37,897 bases of DNA from Eubacteriales bacterium (GTDB lineage: Bacteria; Bacillota; Clostridia; Oscillospirales; Acutalibacteraceae), in assembly GCA_029219885.1 (NCBI GenBank), contig JAQXUH010000049.1, positions 1-37,897 of the forward strand, read 5' to 3'. The translations under genes and the position numbers were made by a program. A model generated the notes under the pieces. It saw only the letters and a list, made by a program, of their open reading frames with translations, ran no database searches and was not told where the DNA came from. Below, piece by piece: positions 24,708 through 37,713 of the stretch. Each line of letters starts with the position of its first letter. Position 1 is the first letter of the stretch.

Positions 24708-26063
24708 TTACTGACTGCTTTTTATGTTAGAAATGATGTCATTAACCTGCCTTGCAAGCTTTGAATTTTTTTCAATCTCATCCTCAATCTGGTTGATGTT
24801 ATACATAACAGTTGAGTGGTGCTTGTGAAATTCCTCGCCGATATCCTCATAGCTCATAGAGGTTACCTTGCGGACAATGTAGAAAGTCATTTTCCTTGCG
24901 TGGGAGATATTAGCCTTTTGCACCTTGCCGTAAATATCCTCGGCAGAAACTCCCGTTGTTCTGCTGACCTCGTCAACAATGTTCTGAATTGTAACAGGCA
25001 GCGGCTGAGTATCCTCCATAATAACCTTAACTACGCTTTGAGCCAAAGCAATTGTAGGTGTCTGACCGCTGATATCGCAAAGAGCGTAAAGCTTTTTAGT
25101 AACGCCCTCAAGCTGACGGATGTTAGATTTAATTTTATCCGCAATATAGCTGACGATAGGGTCCGGAATATCAAAGTTGAGAAGAGTTGCCTTTCTCTTG
25201 ATAATAGCACATCTTGTTTCGTACTCAGGCGGCTGAATGTCTGCAAGAAGACCGTCCTCAAATCTTGATTTAAGCCTGTCGGTCAAGGACTGAATATCCT
25301 TCGGCGGTCTGTCGGAAGTGAGAACAACCTGCTTACCGCTGTAAACAAGAGTGTCAAAGGTGTGGAAAAATTCCTCTTCAGTTGCGTCCTTACCTGCGAT
25401 AAACTGAATATCATCAATGAGAAGAACGTCAATCTCGTTCCTGAATTTAGCGTGAAATTCGTCGGTGGTTTTATTCTGCAACGCCTGAACAAACTCGTTT
25501 GCAAACTGCTCCGCACGAATGTACATAATGTTCATATCAGGAAAATTCTTGTGTACCTCGTGGCAGATTGCGTTAAGTATATGTGTTTTACCGAGACCTG
25601 AATTACCATAGATAAAAAGCGGGTTATAGTTTCTGAAATCTGAGCCGTTTGAAAGATTGGAGCCCGGGTCCGACGCTACTGCCTTTGCAGCGGCGTAAAC
25701 AAATTTGTTACTTGGACCTACTATGAAATTTTCAAAAGTAAACTGCTCGTTTTTATAATCTTCAAGGTGCTTCTGGTCCTGATAAGAAATGTTATATTTA
25801 GGATTTTCCTTTTCCTCATCCTTGCAGATGAAATTAACATTTACCTTAAAGCCCATAATATTTTCAAAGGCTTCCTCAAGAAGTGACTGATATTGAGGAA
25901 CTACAACCTCCATATACATCGGGCGTGGAAAGCACAGCGTAACGGTATTAACCTCAAAGCTCTTAAACTCAATAATTTTTATCCACAGGTTATATGCCGT
26001 CTCGGTAACTCTCTCTTTACAGTAGGCTAAAACCGCCTCCCATATGTCGTTAAAAGAGTCCAT
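24708..26063 (-). CDS. dnaA: Chromosomal replication initiator DnaA
   Basis: The 451-residue initiator has domain I (SFNDIWEAVLAYCKERV), a short linker, and AAA+ domain III with FIYGNSGLGKTHILNA (Walker A) and DVLLIDDIQFIAGKDATEEE (Walker B). The DNA-binding domain IV carries the DnaA signature EFHKHHSTVMYNINQIE. AAGGAGG precedes ATG by five bases. It heads the leftward dnaA-to-gyrA operon. The last box-like site of the oriC candidate abuts its stop codon. Confidence 0.98.
   Translation of the reverse strand: MDSFNDIWEAVLAYCKERVTETAYNLWIKIIEFKSFEVNTVTLCFPRPMYMEVVVPQYQSLLEEAFENIMGFKVNVNFICKDEEKENPKYNISYQDQKHLEDYKNEQFTFENFIVGPSNKFVYAAAKAVASDPGSNLSNGSDFRNYNPLFIYGNSGLGKTHILNAICHEVHKNFPDMNIMYIRAEQFANEFVQALQNKTTDEFHAKFRNEIDVLLIDDIQFIAGKDATEEEFFHTFDTLVYSGKQVVLTSDRPPKDIQSLTDRLKSRFEDGLLADIQPPEYETRCAIIKRKATLLNFDIPDPIVSYIADKIKSNIRQLEGVTKKLYALCDISGQTPTIALAQSVVKVIMEDTQPLPVTIQNIVDEVSRTTGVSAEDIYGKVQKANISHARKMTFYIVRKVTSMSYEDIGEEFHKHHSTVMYNINQIEDEIEKNSKLARQVNDIISNIKSSQ
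25979..25987 (+). promoter_or_regulatory. Perfect DnaA box inside the dnaA 5' region
   Basis: TTATCCACA, an exact consensus match, about 80 bp inside the dnaA coding start. It may be used for autoregulation or as part of a bipartite origin; as coding sequence it may also be coincidental. Confidence 0.4.
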
Positions 26064-26239
26064 TTAAACCTCCTTGGTTTTCTTTACTTTTTGTGTATAC
26101 TTCTTCACTATTTACATATATGTTTTATTATATCATTAAATATTTATTTAATCAATAGTTATTATATAATTTTATATTAATATATATTATATATAGATAG
26201 TATTATACATAGATATATAGGCGGATAGATGTTTTATTG
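26064..26239 (-). promoter_or_regulatory. dnaA: dnaA promoter in an extremely AT-rich upstream region
   Basis: Minus strand TTGATT (26150-26155), exactly 17 bp, TATAAT (26127-26132), about 65 bp upstream of dnaA. The rest, up to 26239, is almost only A and T with TATATA runs. It has no DnaA box that I can find, so the dnaA-dnaN gap is the better unwinding candidate. Confidence 0.7.
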
Positions 26240-26267
26240 CGGGATGTCGAGGACGCCATCCCCTACA
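26240..26267 (-). repeat. Palindromic repeat, AT-type stem
   Basis: Complete copy 37 bp before the ylbJ start. It is translatable in frame with ylbJ, but a ribosome binding site at the downstream ATG makes that extension unlikely. Confidence 0.85.
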
Positions 26268-26303
26268 AAATTAAAACTACTAACTGCAATAAAGGTGACA
26301 AAA

Positions 26304-27326
26304 ATGAAACGAAAACACAGCGACGCAATATCATTAATACTTTTACTAACGGCGGCGGGAATGCTTATCTGCTTTTCGGCAGAGGCGAAAGAGGGAGCGT
26401 ATAACGGCTATGTGCTGGCACAAAGCACAATAATTCCAAGCCTGACACCGCTTTTAATTATTTTCCTAATAGTAATGAAAACGGGTGCAAAAGACGTTTT
26501 AGCCAAAGCCTTGGGGTTTTTATCGCACTATGTGCTTAATCTGCCTTATGTGGTCTTTCCTGCCGTTTTTTTGGGTATGCTGGGAGGTTATCCCACAGGA
26601 GCAATGCTCACAGGTGAGCTTTCAGAGGGTGGTGACATTGATAAAAAGCAGGCAAGGAGAATGATGCGTTTTAATTTCTGCGGCGGAGCAGGCTTTATTA
26701 TTACCGCTGTAGGTACTGCCACCTTAAACAGCCGGCGTGCAGGTGTTATCCTCTTTCTGTCAAACGTAACGGCGTCAATGCTTTTAGGCTTTATCCTGTC
26801 CTTTACCGAAAAGCGAACAGAGGAAAAATTCTACTCCAACGGCGAACGATTAGGTTTTGCAGACGCTATGTGTCAGTCCGTCACCAGTGCAGTAGGCTCG
26901 GTGCTGAACATTACGGCGTACATAATTTTCTTTTCCGCCTTTTCGGGGATATTCAATATCGGCAAATATCTTATGCCACTTTTGGAAATAACCAACGGCG
27001 TCTGCGGTGAAAACCGCTTTTCTCTGCCACTTGTCAGCGGATATCTTGCTTTCGGCGGTCTGTGTATTCATTTACAGCTTTTGCCCTTTATCAGGCAGGC
27101 GGATATGAAGCTTTGGGACTTTTGCCTTTTCCGTGGGCTGTCGGCAGCTTTGTCCTATGGCGTGTGCAGAGTTCTGCTTTTGATTTTTCCCCTTGAGCAG
27201 GAAGTTTTTAATCAGAGTGCTCAGGCAGTACGGCTTTCAAGCGAAAATGCTCTTTTGTCCTTTCTGCTTATTCTCGGCTGTTTCGTTCTTGTCCTTGATA
27301 CAAGGAGTAAAAAATCGGTGGTGTGA
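26304..27326 (+). CDS. ylbJ: Sporulation-type integral membrane protein, YlbJ/SpoVV family
   Basis: The 340-residue protein is mostly hydrophobic, with about eight membrane segments. It carries the family motif MLGGYPTGAMLTGELSEGGD followed by FNFCGGAGFIITAVGT, and belongs to the nucleoside-recognition (Gate) domain group. In B. subtilis YlbJ (SpoVV) helps move dipicolinic acid across the mother-cell-derived membrane during spore formation. The start is set at 26304 behind AGGTG; the in-frame extension back to 26229 reads through a palindromic repeat. It is the last host-type gene before the phage-like cassette and is divergent from dnaA. Confidence 0.83.
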   Translation: MKRKHSDAISLILLLTAAGMLICFSAEAKEGAYNGYVLAQSTIIPSLTPLLIIFLIVMKTGAKDVLAKALGFLSHYVLNLPYVVFPAVFLGMLGGYPTGAMLTGELSEGGDIDKKQARRMMRFNFCGGAGFIITAVGTATLNSRRAGVILFLSNVTASMLLGFILSFTEKRTEEKFYSNGERLGFADAMCQSVTSAVGSVLNITAYIIFFSAFSGIFNIGKYLMPLLEITNGVCGENRFSLPLVSGYLAFGGLCIHLQLLPFIRQADMKLWDFCLFRGLSAALSYGVCRVLLLIFPLEQEVFNQSAQAVRLSSENALLSFLLILGCFVLVLDTRSKKSVV

Positions 27327-27490: not shown

Positions 27491-27530
27491 AAAAACGCTT
27501 ATTTGCCCTATGGGTGAAGGGCGTTTTTTT
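27491..27530 (+). terminator. Terminator or attenuator hairpin before the cassette
   Basis: AAAAACGC (27491-27498) pairs with GCGTTTTT (27521-27528), enclosing an inner GCCCT/AGGGC, and is followed by a run of seven T. It ends 35 bp before the TTG start of the first cassette gene. GCCCTT at 27476-27481 can pair with the same AAGGGC arm, so an alternative anti-terminator fold exists on paper. Confidence 0.5.
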
Positions 27531-27565: not shown

Positions 27566-27904
27566 TTGTCACGAAGAAAAAAGATAACGCAAAAGGAGGT
27601 CAGCGAGGGCTTAAGGCGGTTAGCCTTTGGAGAAATAACAGACGCAGTATCTCTTCTTTACGAATCCGACGAGGATATTATCAAAATGCTTCCCGGACTT
27701 GATTTATTCAACGTCAGCGAAATAAAAAGACCTAAGGGGGGCGGTATGGAGATAAAATTCTTCGACAGGCTCAAGGCACTTGAAAAGCTCAGAGAAATTG
27801 CGGTAATGGAAGAGGGCAAGGAGCAGACGTCATTTTTTGACGCTCTTGAAAGTGCATCCTCATCAGTAAATCTTTACGGAGATGATGACGGTGAACAGCT
27901 TTAA
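27566..27904 (+). CDS. Phage terminase small subunit, shortened
   Basis: The 112-residue protein (TTG start behind GGAG) has a C-terminal segment MEIKFFDRLKALEKLREIA. This matches the oligomerisation/large-subunit-contact motif seen at the end of XtmA-like small terminases (KLYDKLKALELL-type). The N-terminal part is short and helical with KITQKEVSEGLRRLAFG; a full helix-turn-helix DNA-binding domain seen in typical 150-220-residue relatives is not evident. It directly precedes the large subunit and overlaps its start by 14 bases. The function rests on motif plus position. Confidence 0.7.
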   Translation: MSRRKKITQKEVSEGLRRLAFGEITDAVSLLYESDEDIIKMLPGLDLFNVSEIKRPKGGGMEIKFFDRLKALEKLREIAVMEEGKEQTSFFDALESASSSVNLYGDDDGEQL

Positions 27905-29150
27905 ACCATTTTCAAAAAAACAGCTTGCGGTTTTAACCTGGTGGTGCAAGGGCAGTAAGGTCAGCGATAAAAACGGAATAATCTGCGACGGAGCCGTCAG
28001 GTCGGGCAAAACACTTTGTATGAGCATTTCGTTTATATGCTGGGCGTTTTACTATTTCAGCGGTACGTCCTTTGCAATCTGCGGAAAGACTATCGCATCC
28101 CTGAGACGAAATGTAATAACACCCCTTTTGCCTGTTTTAAACGAGCTTGGCTTTTCCTACGACTACAAGATAAGCAGAAATGTAATTGAAATTTCAAAGG
28201 GAAATATCACAAACAGCTTTTACCTTTTCGGCGGTAGAGATGAATCTTCAGCGTCGCTGATTCAGGGTATGACCTTAGGCGGCGTAATGCTTGACGAGGT
28301 GGCTTTGATGCCAAGGAGCTTTGTGGAGCAGGCTCTGGCAAGATGCTCCCTTGAAAATTCAAAATACTTTTTTAACTGCAATCCGGAGCATCCCTATCAT
28401 TGGTTTTACACCGAGTGGATAAAAAAGCATAACGAGAAAAATGTTTTGTATCTCCACTTCACAATGCAGGATAACCCGTCGCTGTCAAAGGCTGTAATCG
28501 AAAGGTACAAAAGTCTTTATTCGGGAGCGTTTTATGAGCGTTTCGTTGAGGGCAAGTGGGTGTGTGCTCAAGGACTTGTATATCCTATGTTTGACTGCCA
28601 ACGGCACGTTAAGGAGTGCAGGGGTAAAATTACCCGATATTTCCTTTCCTGCGATTACGGCACTGTAAATCCCTTTTCCTTAGGTCTTTGGGGAGAGTGC
28701 GGCGGCAAGTGGTACAGGCTTGATGAATATTATCATTCAGGCAGAGATACAGGCATACAGCTAACAGACGAGGAATATTATCAGGAGCTTTGCACTCTGG
28801 CAAAAGGCAAAAATATTGAGGCTCTTGTAATTGACCCGTCGGCGGCGTCCTTTATTCAGACTGTTAAGCGTCACGGAAAATACAGAGTAATCAAGGCGGA
28901 TAACGATGTCCTTTCAGGTATCAACAAGGTTTGCCGAGCCTTAAAGGAAGAGGCCTTTTATATTTCCCCCGGCTGCCGAGACAGTATAAGAGAATTTTCC
29001 GTTTACCGATGGGATGACAGCATTAAAAAGGACGCCGTAAAAAAAGAAAATGACCACGCAATGGATGACATACGCTACTTTGTTGCAACTATTATGAAAA
29101 GCGACAGAGACGGCAGTTCGGTCTTTTCCGTTGCAATAGAAAGGAACTGA
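27891..29150 (+). CDS. Phage terminase large subunit (XtmB type)
   Basis: The ATPase-nuclease that packages DNA, about 419 residues. It has Walker A CDGAVRSGKT (about 32-41) and Walker B GGVMLDEVAL. An Asn-containing coupling segment FFNCNPEHPYHW follows. The RNase H-like nuclease carboxylates are in FLSCDYGTVNPF, ALVIDPSAAS and HAMDDIRYFV, so the catalytic set is complete. GTG 27891 is preferred over ATG 27882/27885 because GGAG ends nine bases upstream. An intact motor argues against simple decay. The portal TTG start follows five bases after its stop. Confidence 0.9.
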   Translation: MNSFKPFSKKQLAVLTWWCKGSKVSDKNGIICDGAVRSGKTLCMSISFICWAFYYFSGTSFAICGKTIASLRRNVITPLLPVLNELGFSYDYKISRNVIEISKGNITNSFYLFGGRDESSASLIQGMTLGGVMLDEVALMPRSFVEQALARCSLENSKYFFNCNPEHPYHWFYTEWIKKHNEKNVLYLHFTMQDNPSLSKAVIERYKSLYSGAFYERFVEGKWVCAQGLVYPMFDCQRHVKECRGKITRYFLSCDYGTVNPFSLGLWGECGGKWYRLDEYYHSGRDTGIQLTDEEYYQELCTLAKGKNIEALVIDPSAASFIQTVKRHGKYRVIKADNDVLSGINKVCRALKEEAFYISPGCRDSIREFSVYRWDDSIKKDAVKKENDHAMDDIRYFVATIMKSDRDGSSVFSVAIERN

Positions 29151-29154
29151 GATA

Positions 29155-30279
29155 TTGGGTTTATTTGAAAAAAGAAAAAAGAAAGCCCCAAGCACCTCGG
29201 CGGCCGCCGTTCAAACTGCGGTAAATTCTTCTCACCCTTACAGGTCTCTTGCGTCATATCAGCCCTTGTCGGCAGAAACTGCGGTATACGCCAAGCTTCG
29301 AGAGGCAGTACCTATTCTTGACGCGGCATTAAACAAGATAGTCAGGCTTACAGACGGCTTTTCCTTTGAAACAGGCAACGACAGCCTCAACGCTGAAATG
29401 AATACATATTTTGAAAATATCAACGTCGGCGGAAATCAAAAGGGCCTTTCGTCTTTTATTTCAAACTATCTTAATCAGCTTCTCACCTTTGGTACTGCCG
29501 TTGGCGAAATGGTGGTTGACGGCAGCGGACTTTACGCTCTTTACAACAGCAGTCTGTCAAATATTGAGCTTAAGAGAAACGAAAACGGAATTGATGTAGA
29601 TTTTTACAACTTCGGCGAAAAGCTGAAATATCCGAATCTTGTGCTTTATTCCGTATTAAACCCGCAGCCTGAACAGCTTTGCGGAACAAGTCTTTTAAGC
29701 GGTCTGCCTTTTCTCAGCGATATACTGATGAAAATTTACAACACCATAGGCGAGAATTGGGAGCACGCAGGAAACGTGAGATATGCAGTAATCTGCAAGC
29801 CGTCGGAAAATGCTGATTTAACAGACGCGTCTGTTCAGGCGGAAACTGTTGCACAGGCCTGGAAAAGTGCTATGGACTCTTCTTCCGTAAAAGATTTTGT
29901 GGCGGTAGGAGATGTGAGCATTAAGGTAATCGGCGGCGACAAGGAAATTCTTGACAGCGAAATACCTGTAAGACAGATTCTTGAACAGCTTGTGGCAAAA
30001 ACAGGCATACCGCCCTTTATGTTAGGACTTAGCTGGTCTTCAACAGAGAGAATGAGCACTCAGCAGGCAGATATTCTCACCACCGAGCTGGAGGCTTACA
30101 GGCGAATTTTAACGCCGGTTATAACTAAAATCGGCAATATGTATCTTGCCTTGTCAGGACGAAGCTGTGACCTTAAGGTAAATTGGGATGAAATCACACT
30201 TCAGGACGAAAAGGATTCGGCTCAAGCAGAGCTTTATCTTGCACAGGCAGAAAAAATTAAAAGGGAGGCCGAGATGTGA
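29155..30279 (+). CDS. Phage portal protein
   Basis: The 374-residue protein starts at TTG with AGGA nine bases upstream (MGLFEKRKKK). It has the portal-like order: variable N-terminus, an alpha/beta core with LLTFGTAVGEMVVDGSG, and a conserved central helix region with ILEQLVAKTGIPPFMLGLSW. The SSTERMSTQQADILTTELEAYRR segment follows. It forms the dodecameric DNA channel of the head. It is shorter than most portals (400-500 residues). Placement between terminase and protease is canonical, and its stop overlaps the protease start by four bases. Confidence 0.85.
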   Translation: MGLFEKRKKKAPSTSAAAVQTAVNSSHPYRSLASYQPLSAETAVYAKLREAVPILDAALNKIVRLTDGFSFETGNDSLNAEMNTYFENINVGGNQKGLSSFISNYLNQLLTFGTAVGEMVVDGSGLYALYNSSLSNIELKRNENGIDVDFYNFGEKLKYPNLVLYSVLNPQPEQLCGTSLLSGLPFLSDILMKIYNTIGENWEHAGNVRYAVICKPSENADLTDASVQAETVAQAWKSAMDSSSVKDFVAVGDVSIKVIGGDKEILDSEIPVRQILEQLVAKTGIPPFMLGLSWSSTERMSTQQADILTTELEAYRRILTPVITKIGNMYLALSGRSCDLKVNWDEITLQDEKDSAQAELYLAQAEKIKREAEM

Positions 30280-31253
30280 CAGAGAATTTTAAAGAGGGCT
30301 TTACGGTAAAAAGTGTTGAGCTGACAGATGATGAGCTTGAAAAGATAAACAGCTTCACACGCAGTCCCTTTACGGCGGACAGGCTTTACGCTTTTAACGT
30401 AACTCTCTGCAACAACGATATTGACAGAGACAACGAGAAGTTCGATTTGTCAGCACTTAACGCACTTGCACCGATGTTTATCGGCAGGACAGGTATCAAG
30501 GACCACTCAATGAAGTCCGATGACCAGACGGCACGAATTTACGATACGTGGGTAGAAAAGCAGGAGGGCAGAAAAACTGCCGACGGCGAAGATTACTACT
30601 GCCTTAAGGCTAAAGCGTATATGGTGAGAAGTGATGAAAACCAGCCCTTTATCACCGCACTTGAGGCAGGAATTAAAAAGGAGGTTTCCGTTTCCTGCTC
30701 AATGGGAAAGAGTATCTGCTCTGTTTGCGGTGAGGATAAAAGAGCTCACAGGTGCGAGCATATTCCGGGTAAGGTCTACAATGGCAAAAAGGCATTTGTC
30801 ATACTGACCGACCCACAGGTCGCCTACGAATTCAGCTTTGTAGCTGTACCGGCACAAAGAGAGGCAGGCGTTACTAAAAACTATAAAATTACAGAAAAGG
30901 AAGCTTTGGATATGGAAAGCATTATGAAAACACTCAAGAGCTGTACCGACAGCGTTGTGCTTACAAAGGCTCAGGCTGAAAGTGCAGTTGAATATATTGA
31001 AAGCCTTGAGGATAACGCAAAGCTCGGCTGCGAGTACAAAAAGAGCCTTACCGACGAGGTGGTAAGACTTTGTGCCGTTGTAATGCCTGATATGGATATT
31101 GAAACCTTTAAGGGTGTTGCACAGGTAATGACTGCCAAGGAGCTACAGTCATTCAAAAAGGCTTTCTCAAAAACAAATTACGAAAAGTCTGCCGCTCGAC
31201 AGATTAAAGACGGCAGCGGCGAAAACAAGCAGTTAAATCAGTTTAAGCTTTGA
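30276..31253 (+). CDS. Prohead protease/scaffold-like protein with Cys-His cluster
   Basis: The 325-residue protein (GTG start behind GGGAGG) has a candidate catalytic His77 in GIKDHSMKSD and Ser in EVSVSCSM (about 136-143), fitting herpesvirus-like prohead proteases. Inserted right after is C148-x2-C151 ... C160-x-H162 (ICSVCGEDKRAHRCEHIPG), a probable zinc knuckle seen in clostridial phage relatives. The C-terminal 115 residues are helical and charged, and may act as scaffold. It sits between portal and capsid, the usual place. The catalytic assignment is inference. Confidence 0.7.
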   Translation: MTENFKEGFTVKSVELTDDELEKINSFTRSPFTADRLYAFNVTLCNNDIDRDNEKFDLSALNALAPMFIGRTGIKDHSMKSDDQTARIYDTWVEKQEGRKTADGEDYYCLKAKAYMVRSDENQPFITALEAGIKKEVSVSCSMGKSICSVCGEDKRAHRCEHIPGKVYNGKKAFVILTDPQVAYEFSFVAVPAQREAGVTKNYKITEKEALDMESIMKTLKSCTDSVVLTKAQAESAVEYIESLEDNAKLGCEYKKSLTDEVVRLCAVVMPDMDIETFKGVAQVMTAKELQSFKKAFSKTNYEKSAARQIKDGSGENKQLNQFKL

Positions 31254-31285
31254 TTTAACAAATTAAATTTAGGAGGAATTTATTT

Positions 31286-32275
31286 ATGTCATACGACAGC
31301 ATTAAACTTGAAAGAGGCTTTTACAGCACAGAAAAATCATTCACTCAGACACTTGAGGACCTTGACCCGTCGGAAAACTACAAGGGAACAGCCCTTGAGG
31401 GACTTGACGCCTTTGAGCGTCAGCTTAAGAGATTTGACATTAAGGTAACAGGTCAGGACTCCGATACTGTATCAAAGTTTTTCAAAACCACAGACGCGGC
31501 AGTCCTTTTCCCCGAGTACCTTTCAAGAGCGGTAAACGCAGGTATTCTCGGCAACGACAAGGTTGAAAGCATTATTGCCACCACCACAAAGATTGACTCT
31601 CTGGACTACCGCTCAATCAAGCTTGACGAGAGCGTTGATAAGTTTTATCCGGAGGAGGTAGGCGAAGGCAACCCTATTCCTGAGCTTGCAATCACAGCCG
31701 ACAGCAGCCTTACAGAGCTTAAGAAGTTCGGCAAGATGATTTCTGCAAGCTATGAGGCTATCAAGTTCCAGAAGCTTGATATTTTCTCACTTACTCTCAG
31801 ACGAATCGGCGAGAGCATTTCAAACTGTATGTTCAACGAGGCAATCAGTGCAATTCCTTTTGAGAAGTGCGAAACTGTAACAGCCACAGGCACAGAGTTT
31901 ACATATGAGGACTTTGTAAAGCTTTGGCTTTCATTCGGTCAGTACGAGATGTCAACTATCATCTGCAACAAAAACGTGGCAAGACAGCTTCTTCTTATGC
32001 CTGAATTCCGTGACGCAAACGCAGGTCTTGACTTCCACGGAACAGGCAAGCTTATCACTCCTTTCGGAGCAGAAATCATTTGCTTTGAGGAGCTTGCAGA
32101 TAATGACGTTATCGGTCTTGACAAGCGTTACGCTATTGAAAGAGTAATTGCCAGCGATATTACAACCGACTATGACAAGGTTATCGACAAGCAGCTTGAA
32201 AGAGCAACAATTTCTACTATCGTAGGCTTTTCACCGATTTTAAACGGTGCAGTAAAGCATCTCCAGATAGCATAA
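31286..32275 (+). CDS. Phage major capsid protein
   Basis: The 329-residue protein with a strong AGGAGG is preceded by protease and followed by connectors. It opens SYDSIKLERGFYSTEKSFTQ and has ELKKFGKMISASYEAIKFQKLDIF (spine-helix-like) and IICNKNVARQLLLMPEFRDA. The C-terminus SPILNGAVKHLQIA is typical of HK97-fold shells of the XkdG group. The codons look strongly biased (CTT, AAG, GAC), like the host's highly expressed genes, suggesting long residence or expression. The family call rests on context and general pattern. Confidence 0.83.
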   Translation: MSYDSIKLERGFYSTEKSFTQTLEDLDPSENYKGTALEGLDAFERQLKRFDIKVTGQDSDTVSKFFKTTDAAVLFPEYLSRAVNAGILGNDKVESIIATTTKIDSLDYRSIKLDESVDKFYPEEVGEGNPIPELAITADSSLTELKKFGKMISASYEAIKFQKLDIFSLTLRRIGESISNCMFNEAISAIPFEKCETVTATGTEFTYEDFVKLWLSFGQYEMSTIICNKNVARQLLLMPEFRDANAGLDFHGTGKLITPFGAEIICFEELADNDVIGLDKRYAIERVIASDITTDYDKVIDKQLERATISTIVGFSPILNGAVKHLQIA

Positions 32276-32288
32276 GAGGTGAAGTAGG

Positions 32289-32654
32289 ATGACTGATTAT
32301 TCTGCGGTAACTGCCGAGCTGAAAATATTGTCTGCCTTAGATGATGAGGAGCTGGAGCAGTACAAAATTCTTGTTGAAAATATCTGCTCCTCTGTTTCCG
32401 CTCAGCTGAAAAGTGACAGCGTTGAAAATGACAGCCGTGTAATTCATCTTGCTGCCTGCAAAAGCTATTATCAGATTTTGCTTTTAAATCAGTCAGAAAA
32501 CCTTACATCCTTTAAGGCAGGGGACATCACATATTCTATGTCCTCTGCCACTGTAGACTGTGCAAAGGTGTTGTATGAGCAGGCTCTCGGCGACTGCCTG
32601 GAGCTTTTCAAGGAGGAGCCCAAAAGCGACGCCTTTGCTTTTAAGGCGGTGTAA
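32289..32654 (+). CDS. Head-tail connector protein (gp6/XkdH-like)
   Basis: The 121-residue, mostly helical acidic protein (LSALDDEELEQYKILVENIC ... IHLAACKSYYQILLL) lies immediately after the capsid gene, in the position of the first connector that binds the portal. The size and helical pattern agree. No catalytic motif is seen. The next gene starts two bases after its stop. Confidence 0.6.
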   Translation: MTDYSAVTAELKILSALDDEELEQYKILVENICSSVSAQLKSDSVENDSRVIHLAACKSYYQILLLNQSENLTSFKAGDITYSMSSATVDCAKVLYEQALGDCLELFKEEPKSDAFAFKAV

Positions 32655-32655
32655 T

Positions 32656-33012
32656 ATGGTAAACAAAAAACTGATTAAAAGACAGCTTGAAAGGATAGGC
32701 AACAGCGTTTATCTCAAGGACGGCAGCTGGAATTCCACACCATACAAGGCGTATATCTACCCTCTCTGGAGAAGAAAAAGCTCGGCATTTGAGCCGGCGT
32801 ACACCGAGGTGGGTACTAACAGCAGAGAATATTATCTCTATATCGGTCCTTATGACCACGATATTACCACGCTGTCCGATATGGGCAAAACTGTATTTGA
32901 CGGCAATGAATTTACATTTACAAGACGTGACTCTGTAAAAATTGACAACGAGATTATTTATTTTACAGGTATTCTTAAAAAGCTGAAGGAGAACGAGTAT
33001 GCTGAATATTAA
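32656..33012 (+). CDS. Minor capsid/head-closure protein (second connector)
   Basis: The 118-residue, beta-rich protein MVNKKLIKRQLERIGNSVYL contains YKAYIYPLWRRKSSAFEPAY and YYLYIGPYDHDITTLS. It sits in the second connector slot (XkdI-like in PBSX order). The start is set at 32656, directly after the preceding stop; an upstream in-frame extension to 32560 is only read-through of the previous gene. It overlaps the next ORF by 14 bases. Confidence 0.55.
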   Translation: MVNKKLIKRQLERIGNSVYLKDGSWNSTPYKAYIYPLWRRKSSAFEPAYTEVGTNSREYYLYIGPYDHDITTLSDMGKTVFDGNEFTFTRRDSVKIDNEIIYFTGILKKLKENEYAEY

Positions 33013-33412
33013 AACACTTTTGGATGATTTTGTTACTATGGTAAGGGAAAGCGGAGAGCTTGAGGGCGTAAAGCTTATAAGTGCCTATCCTTTTACTGCA
33101 AGACCTACAATGCTCAAGGAAAATCTTGTGGCGGTTGGCATTTCCGACATCAGCCTGAACGCTTGTCATATCGGTTTCAGGGAAAGTGCAGGAGACGTGA
33201 AGATTTTCGCCGATATTTTTGTTCCGTTAGAAGAGGACAGCAGACAGGCGTCGAAAATTTTTACCAAGCTTTGTATCGCATTGAAAAGTATGAATATTAC
33301 TGCCATAAGTGCCGAGAGAATTGTGGCGTCTAAAGAGGCAGGAGCATATGTGATGAAAACAGAGTTTACTTTCAGGGACGAGATTTTGTTTGGAGGTGAA
33401 GGCGGTGAATGA
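32999..33412 (+). CDS. Neck/tail-completion-like protein (third connector)
   Basis: The 137-residue protein MLNIKTLLDDFVTMVRESGE has a mixed alpha/beta pattern, with ISDISLNACHIGFRESAGDV and a C-terminal strand MKTEFTFRDEILFGGE. The position corresponds to XkdJ-type proteins that normally join the head to the tail sheath and tube. In PBSX-like phages the next gene would be the sheath; here a 28-codon ORF and then the LysM protein follow. Confidence 0.5.
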   Translation: MLNIKTLLDDFVTMVRESGELEGVKLISAYPFTARPTMLKENLVAVGISDISLNACHIGFRESAGDVKIFADIFVPLEEDSRQASKIFTKLCIALKSMNITAISAERIVASKEAGAYVMKTEFTFRDEILFGGEGGE

Positions 33413-33491
33413 CGAAATGGAATATGCAGAGGCTCTCAGCGAGCTTATCAGGCTTGACAGAAAGCGTTATGACGGCTCCGCCATGGAATAA
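33405..33491 (+). CDS. 28-residue ORF at the missing-tail junction
   Basis: GTG at 33405 overlaps the preceding stop (33410-33412), and its own TAA overlaps the ATG of the next gene by one base (33491). GGAGGTGAAGG lies just upstream. The peptide MNDEMEYAEALSELIRLDRK and its last eight residues form one charged helix. I do not recognise it. It may be a genuine small structural protein, or the fused remains of genes that once lay between neck and LysM protein. The exact start/stop overlaps argue that it is translated. Confidence 0.5.
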   Translation: MNDEMEYAEALSELIRLDRKRYDGSAME

Positions 33492-34027
33492 TGGCAGAAA
33501 ATAATAACATTAAGCTGAAGTTCGGCGGCTTTGAATTTCCCTCAAATCCCGATGAAATCAAAGCAGAGCTTTCATCAAGAGTAAGCCACAGCCCGCTTAT
33601 TAACGGCCTCAGCGTAACAGAAAAGACGGCAGAGGAGCCGTCGGTTATAAAAGGAAAAGGCGTGTTTTATGAAAGCGACGCAGAGGAATACTGCACAAGG
33701 CTTTCACACCTGATGAGGAAAAAGGCATCAAGCTGGCTTTTCTGCCCCGGAATTTACCCTATGAAGGCGTACCTTTCTGACTTTTCATACTGCCTTAAAA
33801 GTACAGGCGGTATCAGCTACAGCTTTACCTTTACAGAGGACTGCGGTGACACCTTGACTGAAAGGAGCTTTCTTTTTACAGAGGCTTTAGAGGGCGAAAA
33901 CGCCTTTGACGTTGCAGGCAGATGCGGTGTATCAGTAAATGACATAATGACGCTTAACGATATTGCAACGCCTTTTGATATTACACAGGGCAGGAGGATA
34001 AAAATACGTGAAAATAGTAATGACTGA
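33491..34027 (+). CDS. LysM-containing baseplate protein (XkdP/gp53-like)
   Basis: The 178-residue protein has an N-terminal domain of about 120 residues (KLKFGGFEFPSNPDEIKAEL ... YSFTFTED) and a C-terminal LysM module of about 45 residues (ENAFDVAGRCGVSVNDIMTL, then a segment ending RRIKIREN). Homologues in contractile phages follow the tape measure and join tube to baseplate. Here it follows the neck genes directly. Its N-terminal domain could in principle bridge head and hub, but that is speculation. The hub start overlaps its end by 20 bases. Confidence 0.75.
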   Translation: MAENNNIKLKFGGFEFPSNPDEIKAELSSRVSHSPLINGLSVTEKTAEEPSVIKGKGVFYESDAEEYCTRLSHLMRKKASSWLFCPGIYPMKAYLSDFSYCLKSTGGISYSFTFTEDCGDTLTERSFLFTEALEGENAFDVAGRCGVSVNDIMTLNDIATPFDITQGRRIKIRENSND

Positions 34028-34952
34028 CATTGACGGCAGTACCCTCTGCCCAAAAAATATTACTCACCTGACAATGACGGACACGGCAGACGCCGCCTGC
34101 TCGTCTGTGGCTCTTAAATTCAAGGACAAGGAAAGAATAGGCGAAATAAATTCAGTAAAGGTTTATGACGGCGACAAGGCAGTATTCTGCGGTTTTTGCG
34201 ACTGCCAGAGGGTAACGGCAGACGGCGACGGCTTTGAGTGCTATATATACGCACGCTCCTCTGCCTGCCTTTTGGTGGACAGTCAGGCAAAGCCCTTTAC
34301 CTTTAACTGTCCGTCGGCTCGTCAGCTTTGGTGCGAATATGCAAAGGCCTTGGGTTTTTCATACAGCCTGCCCGAATATTACTGCAAGGAGAAGTATGAA
34401 ATATCCTCAGGCACCTCCTGCTTCGGTGCAATCAACAATTTTGTTACGGCACTTTCAGGCAGTGAGATTTATATAAACGCCCAAAATGAGCTTTGCCTGC
34501 GTCAGGAAAGTCAGGATATTAAGAGCCTTTCAAAATACGATATAATTTCCGCCTCCTCGGTGATAAACAGAAGTGAGCCCATTTCAAAAATCAGCTTCAG
34601 GCGAGAGCAGGATAACGGCTACAACGCTCATATGGAGTCGGGCTTTGTGATTGATAAAGGTATCAGCCGTGAAAGGTTTGTAAACTTAAATTCCGTGGCG
34701 TCCTGGCAGCGAGACAATACTGTTTACCGCAGGCTTAAGGGCTATACTCAAAGCTATATGCTTTTAGAGGTGACAGTTGCAGGACATATAGACGAGGAGC
34801 TTTATCAGCGTTACAGCTTTCACGGCGACATAGGCGATTTTGACGATTACATTCTCACAGAGAAAAAGTACACCTTTGACGGCTCACGAGAACGCACAAG
34901 GCTCACCCTGAGAAAATCTATTGATATAGGAGATGTGATGTATGTGGATTAG
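34008..34952 (+). CDS. Baseplate hub protein (XkdQ/gpD-like)
   Basis: The 314-residue protein starts at GTG behind AGGAGG. It shows repeated beta-strand units typical of hub proteins: ITHLTMTDTADAACSSVALK, VKVYDGDKAVFCGFCDCQRV, then the insertion-like domain ARQLWCEYAKALGFSYSLPE and the late C-terminal GSRERTRLTLRKSIDIGDVM. In contractile tails this trimer caps the tube and holds the spike. It overlaps the LysM gene and the spike gene. Confidence 0.72.
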   Translation: MKIVMTDIDGSTLCPKNITHLTMTDTADAACSSVALKFKDKERIGEINSVKVYDGDKAVFCGFCDCQRVTADGDGFECYIYARSSACLLVDSQAKPFTFNCPSARQLWCEYAKALGFSYSLPEYYCKEKYEISSGTSCFGAINNFVTALSGSEIYINAQNELCLRQESQDIKSLSKYDIISASSVINRSEPISKISFRREQDNGYNAHMESGFVIDKGISRERFVNLNSVASWQRDNTVYRRLKGYTQSYMLLEVTVAGHIDEELYQRYSFHGDIGDFDDYILTEKKYTFDGSRERTRLTLRKSIDIGDVMYVD

Positions 34953-35292
34953 CAAGCAGACAGTAAACGGCGGCGACAAGGCTGCCGTTGAAAGCGGTAA
35001 GGTCACTCTCAACGATAACGGACACCTTGAGGCAGTTTCCACAGGAGCACAGAGAAGTGTTAAGGTTTATGCACCCTACGGCTACTCTTTTTCAGCTCCC
35101 AAGGGAAGTGAACTGCTGATGACGAGAAATGCAGGAGAACAGGTGTCCTTTGCCTGTGAAATGGAAAGTGCAGACACCAAAGAGGGCGAAATAAAAATAA
35201 CTGCCTCGTCAGGAGCGTATATACACCTGAAAAACGACGGCAGCGTAATAATCAACGGACTTAAAATCAACAGTAAAGGAGAAATAGTATGA
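34942..35292 (+). CDS. Baseplate spike protein (gpV-like)
   Basis: The 116-residue protein has an OB-like start, GSELLMTRNAGEQVSFACEM, and a C-terminal repetitive strand region GEIKITASSGAYIHLKNDGS, then VIINGLKINSKGEIV, the pattern of a small triple-stranded beta-helix spike. It is shorter than P2 gpV (about 210 residues) and lacks an obvious HxH iron tip. It is placed between hub and gp25-like protein as in PBSX (XkdR region). Confidence 0.65.
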   Translation: MWISKQTVNGGDKAAVESGKVTLNDNGHLEAVSTGAQRSVKVYAPYGYSFSAPKGSELLMTRNAGEQVSFACEMESADTKEGEIKITASSGAYIHLKNDGSVIINGLKINSKGEIV

Positions 35293-35609
35293 CAACGGAC
35301 AATGAAACTGCAAAGAGCAGTATTACCGCTGATGAATGTGATGAAATCAGCAAGCTCCTTTCCGACTGTCTTTATTCTCTGTACTGCCCCAGAGGAAAAT
35401 TTTATCCCAAAAAGGACTACGGCAGTTTAATCAGGCTTTGCCAAAGCGAAAACGAAATGTACCTTTTGGCTTATGCAAGACAGGCACTATCAGCCTTTGA
35501 CGGCGTGTATGTTAAAAGCGTGGCGGTGGAAAAGGGCAATTTTGTTTTTACACTTCTTATAAACGAACAGGAAAGGACGGTGACCCTCACTTATGAGGCT
35601 GACATATGA
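35289..35609 (+). CDS. gp25-like baseplate wedge protein (XkdS/DUF2634 type)
   Basis: The 106-residue protein contains CPRGKFYPKKDYGSLIRL, a conserved gp25/W signature (acidic-Tyr-Gly), and LLAYARQALSAFDGVYVKSV, where the polymerising helix and strand lie. In T4 gp25 nucleates the sheath, so its presence without a sheath gene is notable. It overlaps the J gene by 17 bases. Confidence 0.75.
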   Translation: MTTDNETAKSSITADECDEISKLLSDCLYSLYCPRGKFYPKKDYGSLIRLCQSENEMYLLAYARQALSAFDGVYVKSVAVEKGNFVFTLLINEQERTVTLTYEADI

Positions 35610-36672
35610 AGATATTGAAAGCAACATAAAAAGTGCTTATTTTGAGAAAAACGGCTCCAACGCCGACAAAAATTCCGTTGAGGAAAAGATTATGGAGGCT
35701 GTTTGTGCCGAGCTTTACGGCTTGTCCTGCTACGGCGACTACATAATGAAGCAGTCCTTTGTGCAGACCGCCACGGGAGAATATCTTGACCTTTTAGGTG
35801 AAATGAGAGACTGCAAAAGAAAAACTGCCTCCAAGGCCTACGGCACGTTGAGGTTTTATAATTCTCAGCCTGCCGAGGAGGATATACCGATTAAGGCAGG
35901 AACAATCTGCTGTATTGCGGACAAGCCATATATTCAGTTTGTAACTACTGAGGACGGCGTGATTTCGTCAGGCGAAAGCAGTACACAGATAAAAGCAGAG
36001 GCTCTTGACGTATCGGAAAAATACAACGCTTTAGCAGGAGAAATTACAGTTATGGTAAACGCTCCCGTCAAGGTTGAAAGCGTTACAAACGACGCAGATT
36101 TTTTGGGCGGAAATGATGAGGAGACCGATTACTCTTACCGAGAGAGAATTATACAAAACTACACCATTCCCGCAACAGGAACGGGAAAGAAAACTATCGA
36201 AAACAAAATTAATGCTCTTGATTATGTTGCCGACTGCAAAATTCTCAACACCTCTGCTCCCGGAACGGTCAAGGCGGTAGTTGCCGTAAATGACGACGAA
36301 GAAATCACCTCGGACAGAGGCTTTGAAATCAGGGACTGTTTCGGCTTTCTTGATATGGTGGGAGCAACTCTTGAAATTTCTCAGCCAAAGGTGGTAGGCC
36401 TTAATATCAGAATGAACCTGATTCTTTCAAACAAGCTTGACGGCGAGGAGATTGTTAAGCTTGCACAGGATGAGGCAAAGGCAGTTTTCAGCGGAAAGAA
36501 AATCGGCACCTCTGTTTCTGTTTCAAGGATAACAAAGGAGCTTTTGAAAAACGATTATATCAAGGACGTAAGCGTCTTTTGCAGCAACATAGTAAACGGA
36601 GTATTCGTCTGTCCCGATGACGCTTATCTGAAGCTTTTAGACATAAGGGTGGATTGCTATTATGAGTTATGA
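35593..36672 (+). CDS. Baseplate J family protein (XkdT-like)
   Basis: The 359-residue protein opens MRLTYEDIESNIKSAYFEKN and has the Baseplate_J core: VQTATGEYLDLLGEMRDCKR, PIKAGTICCIADKPYIQFVT, EALDVSEKYNALAGEITVMV and FLGGNDEETDYSYRERII (the 'GG.D.E.D..YR.R' signature). It ends with TSVSVSRITKELLKNDYIKD. It forms the wedge that surrounds the hub in contractile machines. It overlaps the next gene by 11 bases. Confidence 0.88.
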   Translation: MRLTYEDIESNIKSAYFEKNGSNADKNSVEEKIMEAVCAELYGLSCYGDYIMKQSFVQTATGEYLDLLGEMRDCKRKTASKAYGTLRFYNSQPAEEDIPIKAGTICCIADKPYIQFVTTEDGVISSGESSTQIKAEALDVSEKYNALAGEITVMVNAPVKVESVTNDADFLGGNDEETDYSYRERIIQNYTIPATGTGKKTIENKINALDYVADCKILNTSAPGTVKAVVAVNDDEEITSDRGFEIRDCFGFLDMVGATLEISQPKVVGLNIRMNLILSNKLDGEEIVKLAQDEAKAVFSGKKIGTSVSVSRITKELLKNDYIKDVSVFCSNIVNGVFVCPDDAYLKLLDIRVDCYYEL

Positions 36673-37219
36673 TATTTACAGCAGGCTTTTCGCTCTTATG
36701 AGCCAAGCTGTGCCTGATTTGGAAAACAGCAGTACAGACAGCCTGATTTATGCCTGCTCGTCAGGTATTCAGGCGGTGAAAGAGTATTTTGACGAAGTAA
36801 AAGCCGAGCAGTATCTTGACACAATGTCAGTTGATATGCTTGATAAATACTGCACTATATTGGATATTTATTACGACCTACCCGATAAAAAGAAAAAGGA
36901 AGAAATAAAAGAAAAGCTTTCCGCAGGATATACAGAGTTTGAGTGCGGTGATTTTGTAGATAAATATAAATCTATGGTCACAAGCGGTTATGTGGTGGCA
37001 GATAATTTTGAGCTCAAGCTTTATAATCTTAAAATGACAAATCTGGTTACCACAGCAGAGGTTATGAAAATGCTTGACTATTATCTTCCTCCTTTTGTTA
37101 TTCCAAAAGGCAACGGCAGCGGGCTGACCTTTGAGGAGCTTGACGGACTTGACAGAAACTTTCATATGCTTGACGAAATGGAAATGCCCTATTCGGTATT
37201 TGAAACTATAAAATTGTAA
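36662..37219 (+). CDS. Baseplate wedge/tail protein (XkdU/YmfQ, DUF2313-like)
   Basis: The 185-residue protein MSYDIYSRLFALMSQAVPDL has the helical segment YLDTMSVDMLDKYCTILDIY and a C-terminal LPPFVIPKGNGSGLTFEELD. The order after baseplate J and before the fibre is that of XkdU. It presumably anchors the fibre-like protein. The motif match is moderate; position carries much of the call. Confidence 0.65.
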   Translation: MSYDIYSRLFALMSQAVPDLENSSTDSLIYACSSGIQAVKEYFDEVKAEQYLDTMSVDMLDKYCTILDIYYDLPDKKKKEEIKEKLSAGYTEFECGDFVDKYKSMVTSGYVVADNFELKLYNLKMTNLVTTAEVMKMLDYYLPPFVIPKGNGSGLTFEELDGLDRNFHMLDEMEMPYSVFETIKL

Positions 37220-37230
37220 GGAGATTTTTT

Positions 37231-37713
37231 ATGAGCAGTACAGATAAAACAGCAAACCTCAGCCTCAATCAGTGGGTGGCATCTGACAGACCCAAGAGAG
37301 AGGACTTTAACTACGATAACGAGCTTATCGACAGAGCTTTTACAAATCACAACAATGACGAAGTACGCCATATTACCGCCGAGGAAAGAGAGGCCTGGAA
37401 CAACGGCGTGTACTTGGGTATGTATTTCGGCGACGACCAGACAGAAAGGCGAATTGAAACAGGCTGTCCCTTTGAGCCGGTTTTCGTTGTTGTGTTCGGT
37501 GCGTCACGTCCTTTGAGCTTTTGCGATTACAACAGTCAGAAAAAGTATAATTTCATCGGCTTGGCGTCACCGGTTTCTTCCACAATAAATATTGCCGTTG
37601 AAGATGGCGGTGCCACTCTTGTGGTAAATCAGGACCTGTGTACGTCTTACAAAGATGAATATACCTGCCTGAATCAGCTTGGCGTGGCGTATACGTATAT
37701 TATGTTTAGGTAA
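37231..37713 (+). CDS. Short tail-fibre-like protein
   Basis: The 160-residue protein is preceded by AAGGAG. The N-terminal part TANLSLNQWVASDRPKREDF and NNDEVRHITAEEREAWNNG is the common N-terminal/linker pattern of Firmicute phage fibres. The C-terminal 90 residues (YLGMYFGDDQTERRIETGCP ... AYTYIMFR) form a small beta-rich domain resembling fibre-tip domains. It is much shorter than normal fibres. Its TAA stop begins the 20 bases shared with the mnmE stop region. Confidence 0.7.
   Translation: MSSTDKTANLSLNQWVASDRPKREDFNYDNELIDRAFTNHNNDEVRHITAEEREAWNNGVYLGMYFGDDQTERRIETGCPFEPVFVVVFGASRPLSFCDYNSQKKYNFIGLASPVSSTINIAVEDGGATLVVNQDLCTSYKDEYTCLNQLGVAYTYIMFR

What the first reader, a model, noticed from the sequence alone, without database searches (positions are those of the whole stretch)
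27566..37713. Intact head and baseplate genes without sheath, tube or tape measure, next to the origin
Seen: terminase, portal, protease, capsid, connectors, LysM, hub, spike, gp25-like, J, XkdU-like and fibre genes, all open and tightly packed. Known: in PBSX-like and other myophages, sheath, tube, chaperones and tape measure lie between the neck genes and the LysM protein. They are absent. Complete ATPase and nuclease motifs and overlapping reading frames suggest the set is maintained. Possible meanings: a gene-transfer-agent-like or domesticated particle, a satellite that borrows tails, a head bound directly to a baseplate, or a tidy deletion. No integrase, repressor or lysis genes are visible.
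Basis: partly seen in the sequence, partly recalled or inferred. Interest (0 to 1): 0.88.

Follow-up and report, generated by a model that had tools for sequence, protein, structure and literature searches.

The report
Inherited phage particle losing its tail
This gut bacterium carries an inherited phage-derived gene set for a DNA-packing head that seems to join straight to a tail tip; many related bacteria carry such sets, and in them the tail has shrunk or vanished several times.

Summary
In detail: an intact head-and-baseplate operon without sheath, tube or normal tape measure. It is not a private deletion. A portal relative occurs once per matching genome in 176 of 300 genomes of the family and 70 of 394 of the order. 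Cassette and host trees agree (Mantel rho 0.67; 26 of 50 splits shared). Selection is purifying. The operon lies beside HflX in 10 genera. Of 55 loci, 16 keep sheath and tube, 30 keep the baseplate without a sheath, 9 lack the J baseplate. The third neck protein has the tail-terminator fold; its top match is the Rhodobacter GTA virion. The small terminase lacks the N-terminal DNA-recognition domain, as in RcGTA. Best reading: a vertically inherited, gene-transfer-agent-like viriform whose contractile tail was dismantled repeatedly. Random packaging, assembly and DNA delivery are inferred. FpGTA of Faecalibacterium (PMC12946183) is the nearest published system; homology to it could not be tested.

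The parts
27566..27904 (+). TerS, short form without the N-terminal HTH
   Evidence: PF03592 matches only profile 57-135 of 141; HTH profile negative
27882..29150 (+). TerL
   Evidence: PF03237 5e-18, phrog_2 3e-50
29155..30279 (+). portal
   Evidence: phrog_30703 1e-122
30276..31253 (+). conserved head protein with an invariant Cys/His cluster; 'protease' not confirmed
   Evidence: phrog_16951 9e-93, unknown function; alignment A6
31286..32275 (+). major capsid protein
   Evidence: phrog_3922 2e-79, PF25209
32289..32654 (+). neck protein 1
   Evidence: no family match; family and order conserved
32656..33012 (+). neck protein 2 (start chosen after the previous gene)
   Evidence: no family match; family and order conserved
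32999..33412 (+). neck protein 3, tail-terminator fold
33405..33491 (+). 28-codon gene in the tape-measure slot; overlaps both neighbours
   Evidence: pooled pN/pS 0.22 over 16 relatives, synonymous sites near saturation
33491..34027 (+). LysM baseplate/hub protein
   Evidence: PF01476 just over cut-off; family matches TPELB_ph1 and phiCD27 LysM proteins
34008..34952 (+). baseplate hub-like
   Evidence: phrog_177 5e-4; relative L245 matches PF22255 over cut-off
34942..35292 (+). spike-like (weak)
   Evidence: phrog_25991 unknown function; Mu Gp45 0.048, under cut-off
35289..35609 (+). gp25-like wedge / sheath-initiator relative (weak)
   Evidence: family matches phiCD27 wedge protein 3e-5; relatives match PF10934 and PF07409 under cut-off
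35593..36672 (+). baseplate J
   Evidence: PF04865 1e-35
36662..37219 (+). Mu gp48/XkdU-like
   Evidence: family matches TPELB_ph1 1.5e-20; relatives PF10076 under cut-off
37231..37713 (+). short fibre-like protein
   Evidence: weak PHROG tail matches

Best explanation
This is one lineage of an old, vertically inherited, phage-derived particle system of the gene-transfer-agent kind. Shown by computation: an operon that is single-copy wherever it was matched, co-inheritance with the host, purifying selection, and repeated loss of sheath, tube and baseplate genes in different lineages. In the window a terminator-fold protein is the last neck gene before the baseplate genes. Inferred: the cell makes a small capsid; TerL, with a TerS that has lost its site-recognition domain, fills it with largely random host DNA; the terminator ring joins directly to the LysM/hub/wedge baseplate, with the 28-residue remnant of the tape-measure gene at the hub; the particle then binds kin cells and delivers DNA like a short-tailed phage. 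Lysis and regulation come from genes elsewhere (not found).
For: Portal once per matching genome in 176 of 300 family genomes, 80 of 135 genera, and in 70 of 394 order genomes. Head genes in 21 of 21 first loci and baseplate genes in 20 of 21. GyrB tree against cassette tree, 53 genomes: Mantel 0.67, largest of 999 permutations 0.26, 26 of 50 splits shared. Median dN/dS per gene 0.04-0.16. HflX 44-236 bp downstream in 10 genera; g123 (with baseplate) and g98 (without) share the next downstream neighbour, so that loss was in place. Nearest flanking genes mostly cellular (90 of 146 scanned). Sheath changes on the host tree 5, shuffles 13.1, least 8. TerS without HTH, as in RcGTA (PMC6854486, passages read). 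Terminator fold nearest the RcGTA virion, tied with several phage terminators. A 'phage' record with the cassette is a chromosome piece with rpoA and secY.
Against: No particle, transcript or packaged-DNA data. Lysis genes not found. TerS keeps its HTH in 24 of 53 genomes, so random packaging may not be general. 124 of 300 family genomes have no portal match, so the operon is dispensable or often lost. 24 of 50 tree splits are not shared. One congener has a split TerL. The window's chromosomal place is not that of its congeners. That the 28-codon gene is a tape-measure remnant rests on place and on the length series; the motif is not seen in three phage tape measures.
Confidence: 0.75

Rival explanations
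1. A headed killer particle, PBSX-like in use: host DNA is packaged but not usefully delivered, and the particle harms competitors through its baseplate.
For: The baseplate and fibre are kept and evolve faster than the head (J identity 22-34% against portal 45-69%). The FpGTA authors leave this open for their particle (PMC12946183).
Against: Sheath and tube, the piercing parts, are the parts that are lost, while terminase and portal are the most constrained with the capsid.
Confidence: 0.12
2. A decaying prophage remnant.
For: Tail genes are missing; one congener has a broken TerL.
Against: Low dN/dS in each gene family measured, co-inheritance, one copy per matching genome across many genera.
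Confidence: 0.04
3. The tail is supplied in trans by resident prophages or by genes elsewhere, so that the head is borrowed or shared.
For: Congeners G149 and G293 carry long tape-measure genes elsewhere; 38 of 300 family genomes have some sheath.
Against: The own genome and G021, G231 and G071 have no PhageMin_Tail match, genus g1 has no sheath match (5 of 5 genomes), and the cassette keeps its own baseplate.
Confidence: 0.05
4. A satellite or PICI-like mobile element.
For: A partial set of phage genes.
Against: No integrase among the commonest flanking families (rarer ones are not listed); shared chromosomal slots and host-like tree.
Confidence: 0.03

Closest known systems
FpGTA of Faecalibacterium (Borodovich et al. 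2026, PMC12946183; abstract, sections 7, 9 and 26 and passages read)
   Same: Gut Clostridia; TerS without an obvious DNA-binding domain, TerL, portal, head genes; baseplate genes; about 40 nm particles without identifiable tails and with about 8.4-8.9 kb of host DNA.
   Different: FpGTA lies in two loci, about 125 kb apart in one strain, and is called podovirus-like; here head and baseplate are one operon, and relatives still hold sheath and tube, which points to a contractile ancestor. Sequence homology to FpGTA was not tested: no named Faecalibacterium sequence could be reached.
RcGTA of Rhodobacter capsulatus
   Same: Vertical inheritance (PMC9662315, passages read), TerS without HTH (PMC6854486, passages read), terminator fold.
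   Different: Keeps a 49 nm tail (PMC9662315); host is an alphaproteobacterium; no sequence match to it was seen, but it was not searched for by name.
Contractile phages TPELB_ph1 and phiCD27 (and PBSX, recalled)
   Same: Order of neck, sheath, tube, chaperone, tape measure, LysM, hub, gp25-like, J and gp48-like genes; J, gp48-like, LysM, gp25-like and sheath families match one or both.
   Different: They have tape measures of 594 and 1429 aa; the slot has at most 893 bp unassigned in 92 cassette loci. Their head, tube, hub and spike proteins do not match the cassette profiles.

Membership tests
Gene transfer agent (criteria of Kogay et al. 2022, PMC9662315, passages read) | caudoviricete-derived proteins | tested here: met
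   by similarity, no particle seen
Gene transfer agent (criteria of Kogay et al. 2022, PMC9662315, passages read) | mostly random host DNA packaged | not testable with these tools
   indirect only: TerS without HTH
Gene transfer agent (criteria of Kogay et al. 2022, PMC9662315, passages read) | fully endogenised in the host genome | tested here: met
   cellular neighbours and a shared slot in 10 genera
Gene transfer agent (criteria of Kogay et al. 2022, PMC9662315, passages read) | own genome cannot be fully packaged | not testable with these tools
   capsid capacity unknown; cassette about 10.1 kb
Gene transfer agent (criteria of Kogay et al. 2022, PMC9662315, passages read) | vertical inheritance, co-diversification | tested here: met
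   one host marker (GyrB), 53 genomes
Gene transfer agent (criteria of Kogay et al. 2022, PMC9662315, passages read) | packaged DNA delivered to other cells | not testable with these tools
   needs an experiment
FpGTA | sequence homology to FpGTA loci I and II | not tested
   a recalled 16S probe matched 0 of 15 and 0 of 394 genomes, which tells nothing
Contractile phage tail or tailocin | sheath, tube and tape measure present in the window cassette and genome | tested here: not met
   tube search had no positive control

The most novel reading that the evidence does not exclude
An order-wide family of domesticated contractile-tail particles in which host lineages have dismantled the tail in parallel, ending in a DNA-carrying head whose tail terminator sits directly on a baseplate, with the tape measure worn down to a 28-residue hub peptide, and in other lineages a head without any J-type baseplate. 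This would explain tail-less GTA particles of gut Clostridia as secondarily tail-less descendants of contractile phages.
Probability: 0.6. Interest if true: 0.88.

Novelty: new variant of a known kind. Interest (0 to 1): 0.82.

Why it matters
Very few GTA-like elements are known outside Alphaproteobacteria (PMC12946183). Here a single-copy, co-inherited particle operon occurs in many genera of gut Clostridia, with a natural series from contractile tail to no tail. It offers candidate genes for host-DNA packaging seen in gut viromes, where for some packaging MAGs such as Onthomonas no cluster was reported (PMC12946183, section 9). It makes two questions testable: how little tail a DNA-delivering particle needs, and how a tape-measure gene shrinks. 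It also shows that at least one record in a phage collection is a chromosome piece carrying such a cassette.

Tried and rejected
Private deletion: rejected, the same tail-less order occurs in the genus and beyond. Tail genes elsewhere in the own genome: no match; the tube search rang in none of its six genomes and so shows little alone. Satellite and decaying prophage: see the rivals. Protease label: no support. dnaA-ylbJ as a conserved site: not conserved. Tape-measure ending: the D-x-R/K-R-Y ending is not seen in the tape measures of TPELB_ph1, phiCD27 or Shimadzu. Link to FpGTA by name: failed. PDB sequence searches with portal, protein 4 and terminator profiles gave no convincing match; the terminator profile against two TPELB neck proteins gave none. 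Rfam and tRNA scans of the window: none. Papers: seven searches; among the titles and abstract starts listed, PMC12946183 is the one on GTAs of these bacteria. Only open-licence papers are held, so earlier reports may exist.

Limits of the counts. 'Tube absent' is by profile. Of the 18 sheath-less, baseplate-bearing loci without a tube match, L075 and L077 hold a tube-like stretch by eye, and L077, L258, L260, L261, L263 and L269 have about 400-800 bp unassigned. The pattern (64 of 92 loci) includes a few chance matches; the stricter one lists 40 loci. Slot lengths depend on the start codon chosen. The 92 loci include some genomes twice. dN/dS pairs were picked by hand as close pairs; none contains the window; ratios with saturated dS were left out; single values reach 0.43 (spike) and 0.70 (decoration protein, few synonymous changes). 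Loci cut by contig ends (L240, L242, L243, L255, L266) were left out of the 55; G208 and G125 were left out of the trees; G544 and G125 had no TerS call. HTH-negative calls include one probable miss (G537). The J search covered 20 genomes; ten of the fifteen without a match have unknown completeness. Flank families: 90 of the 146 nearest genes were scanned, and the tool listed 25 of 112 Pfam and 25 of 58 PHROG families; two members match a PHROG endolysin family and two a repressor family, which may be host peptidase and regulator genes.
Full report
Observation. The window is the whole of contig C49 of a 105-contig MAG, 86% complete. From 27566 to 37713 it carries fifteen packed + strand genes: TerS, TerL, portal, a conserved head protein, capsid, three neck proteins, LysM, hub, spike-like, gp25-like, J, gp48-like and a short fibre-like gene. 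Its GTG overlaps the end of the third neck gene by eight bases and its stop overlaps the LysM start by one. No sheath, tube or ordinary tape measure lies between neck and LysM.

Spread. One portal query found a relative in 176 of 300 genomes of the same family (150 of 229 of good quality; 80 of 135 genera), one per matching genome. The portal profile found 70 of 394 in the order (67 of 314 of good quality; 41 of 168 genera), again one each. Among 50,697 phage records six match, five of them unannotated faecal scaffolds; the one whose flanks I examined is a bacterial chromosome piece with rpoA, secY and transporters. Of 26 viral-contig relatives 25 are 4-14 kb and one is 30 kb.

Anatomy in relatives. 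In the first 21 loci the head genes TerS to neck 1 are present in 21 and LysM to gp48-like in 20. Over 55 loci from handled genomes, counted by hand: 16 hold sheath and tube; 12 hold a tube match but no sheath; 18 hold the baseplate with neither match; 9 lack the J baseplate (five of these keep a hub-like gene). The sheath identity is firm (L153: PF04984 2e-11, phrog_279 4e-46). In the family search 38 of 300 genomes have some sheath, 0 of 5 in the window's genus. In fifteen genomes with head-only loci the J profile finds nothing anywhere; the other five genomes in that search match.

The tape-measure slot. Directly before LysM, where TPELB_ph1 has a 594-aa and phiCD27 a 1429-aa tape measure, cassette loci have a short gene that usually ends in D-x-R/K-R-Y. 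By the longest start it has 156-215 codons in nine sheath-bearing loci (L105, L151, L153, L156, L160, L244-L247) and 54-120 in six others (L051, L070-L072, L249, L252); six sheath-bearing loci showed no motif. By the start that does not overlap the upstream gene it has roughly 26-60 codons in tube-only loci and 26-33 in most of the window genus. Unassigned gaps before LysM have a median of 493 bp with sheath and tube (n=22), 102 with tube only (n=19) and 91 with neither (n=51); the largest is 893 bp. That the small gene is what is left of the tape measure is inferred from place and from this series.

Inheritance and selection. For 53 genomes the GyrB tree and the TerL+portal+capsid tree share 26 of 50 splits, and their distances correlate at 0.67 against a permutation maximum of 0.26. 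Sheath presence needs 5 changes on the host tree (shuffles 13.1, least 8) and 7 on the cassette tree (13.2, least 9); if it is never regained, at least 6 or 8 losses; for the J baseplate at least 4 or 5 losses. HflX lies 44-236 bp downstream of the cassette in 10 genera (identity of the family). Genera g123 and g98 share the next downstream neighbour, a branching-enzyme-like gene by eye, though only g123 has a baseplate. Of 146 nearest flanking genes 90 were scanned: HflX 10, pantothenate kinase 4, D-Ala carboxypeptidase 3, no integrase among the 25 commonest families. Median dN/dS per gene family lies between 0.036 and 0.162 over up to 13 close pairs, three of them from the window's near kin.

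Packaging. The window TerS is a short form: its Pfam match starts at profile position 57 of 141. A profile of the N-terminal HTH, made from long relatives, is positive in 24 of 53 genomes, negative in the window and in the 18 window-like loci listed, with 6 changes on the host tree against 17.3 in shuffles. RcGTA TerS lacks the same domain, which its authors link to random packaging (PMC6854486, passages read). This supports, but does not show, random packaging here; by the same token lineages that keep the HTH may package differently.

Origin. The J, gp48-like, LysM, gp25-like and sheath families match the contractile phages TPELB_ph1 and/or phiCD27; the head, neck, tube, hub and spike families match neither, nor Shimadzu. 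The window TerL is at most about 50% identical to named phages among the 15 rows shown. A contractile phage ancestor of mixed make-up is an inference.

Comparison. FpGTA (PMC12946183; abstract, sections 7, 9, 26 and passages read) makes about 40 nm particles without identifiable tails that hold about 8.4-8.9 kb of Faecalibacterium DNA, from a head locus and a separate baseplate-and-lysis locus; its authors call it podovirus-like. My loci show a one-operon system with a clear contractile past. By the criteria of PMC9662315 (passages read) three GTA features are met here and three cannot be tested.

Verdict. A new variant of a known kind: a GTA-like viriform, vertically inherited across many genera, in which the tail has been shortened and lost repeatedly. 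The particle, its random packaging and its delivery of DNA remain predictions.

Noticed in passing
window 26251, 27361, 37762 and seven other sites: A short intergenic repeat (core GGACGCC-NN-CCCCTAC) occurs 10 times in the window against 0.01 expected; two copies bracket the cassette. It is absent from six loci of congeners and, in exact form, from all but the window genome's own among 335 loci. It may have helped move the cassette.
   Followed up: partly
window 24708-27326: The dnaA flank differs from that of four congeners, which carry other genes there: a rearrangement or a joint in the MAG.
   Followed up: partly
L060 and L099 (G293), terminase region: TerL is split over three frames in a congener: sequencing error or a recent break.
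   Followed up: no
L335 (MT835508): A GenBank 'Bacteriophage sp.' record is a bacterial chromosome fragment that carries the head part of such a cassette.
   Followed up: yes
L100:12106-12447 and others: A decoration-like protein (phrog_4588) sits between protein 4 and the capsid in many relatives; it is not found in the window and most of its near kin.
   Followed up: partly
window 27504-27523: A terminator-like stem with a T run lies just upstream of TerS.
   Followed up: no
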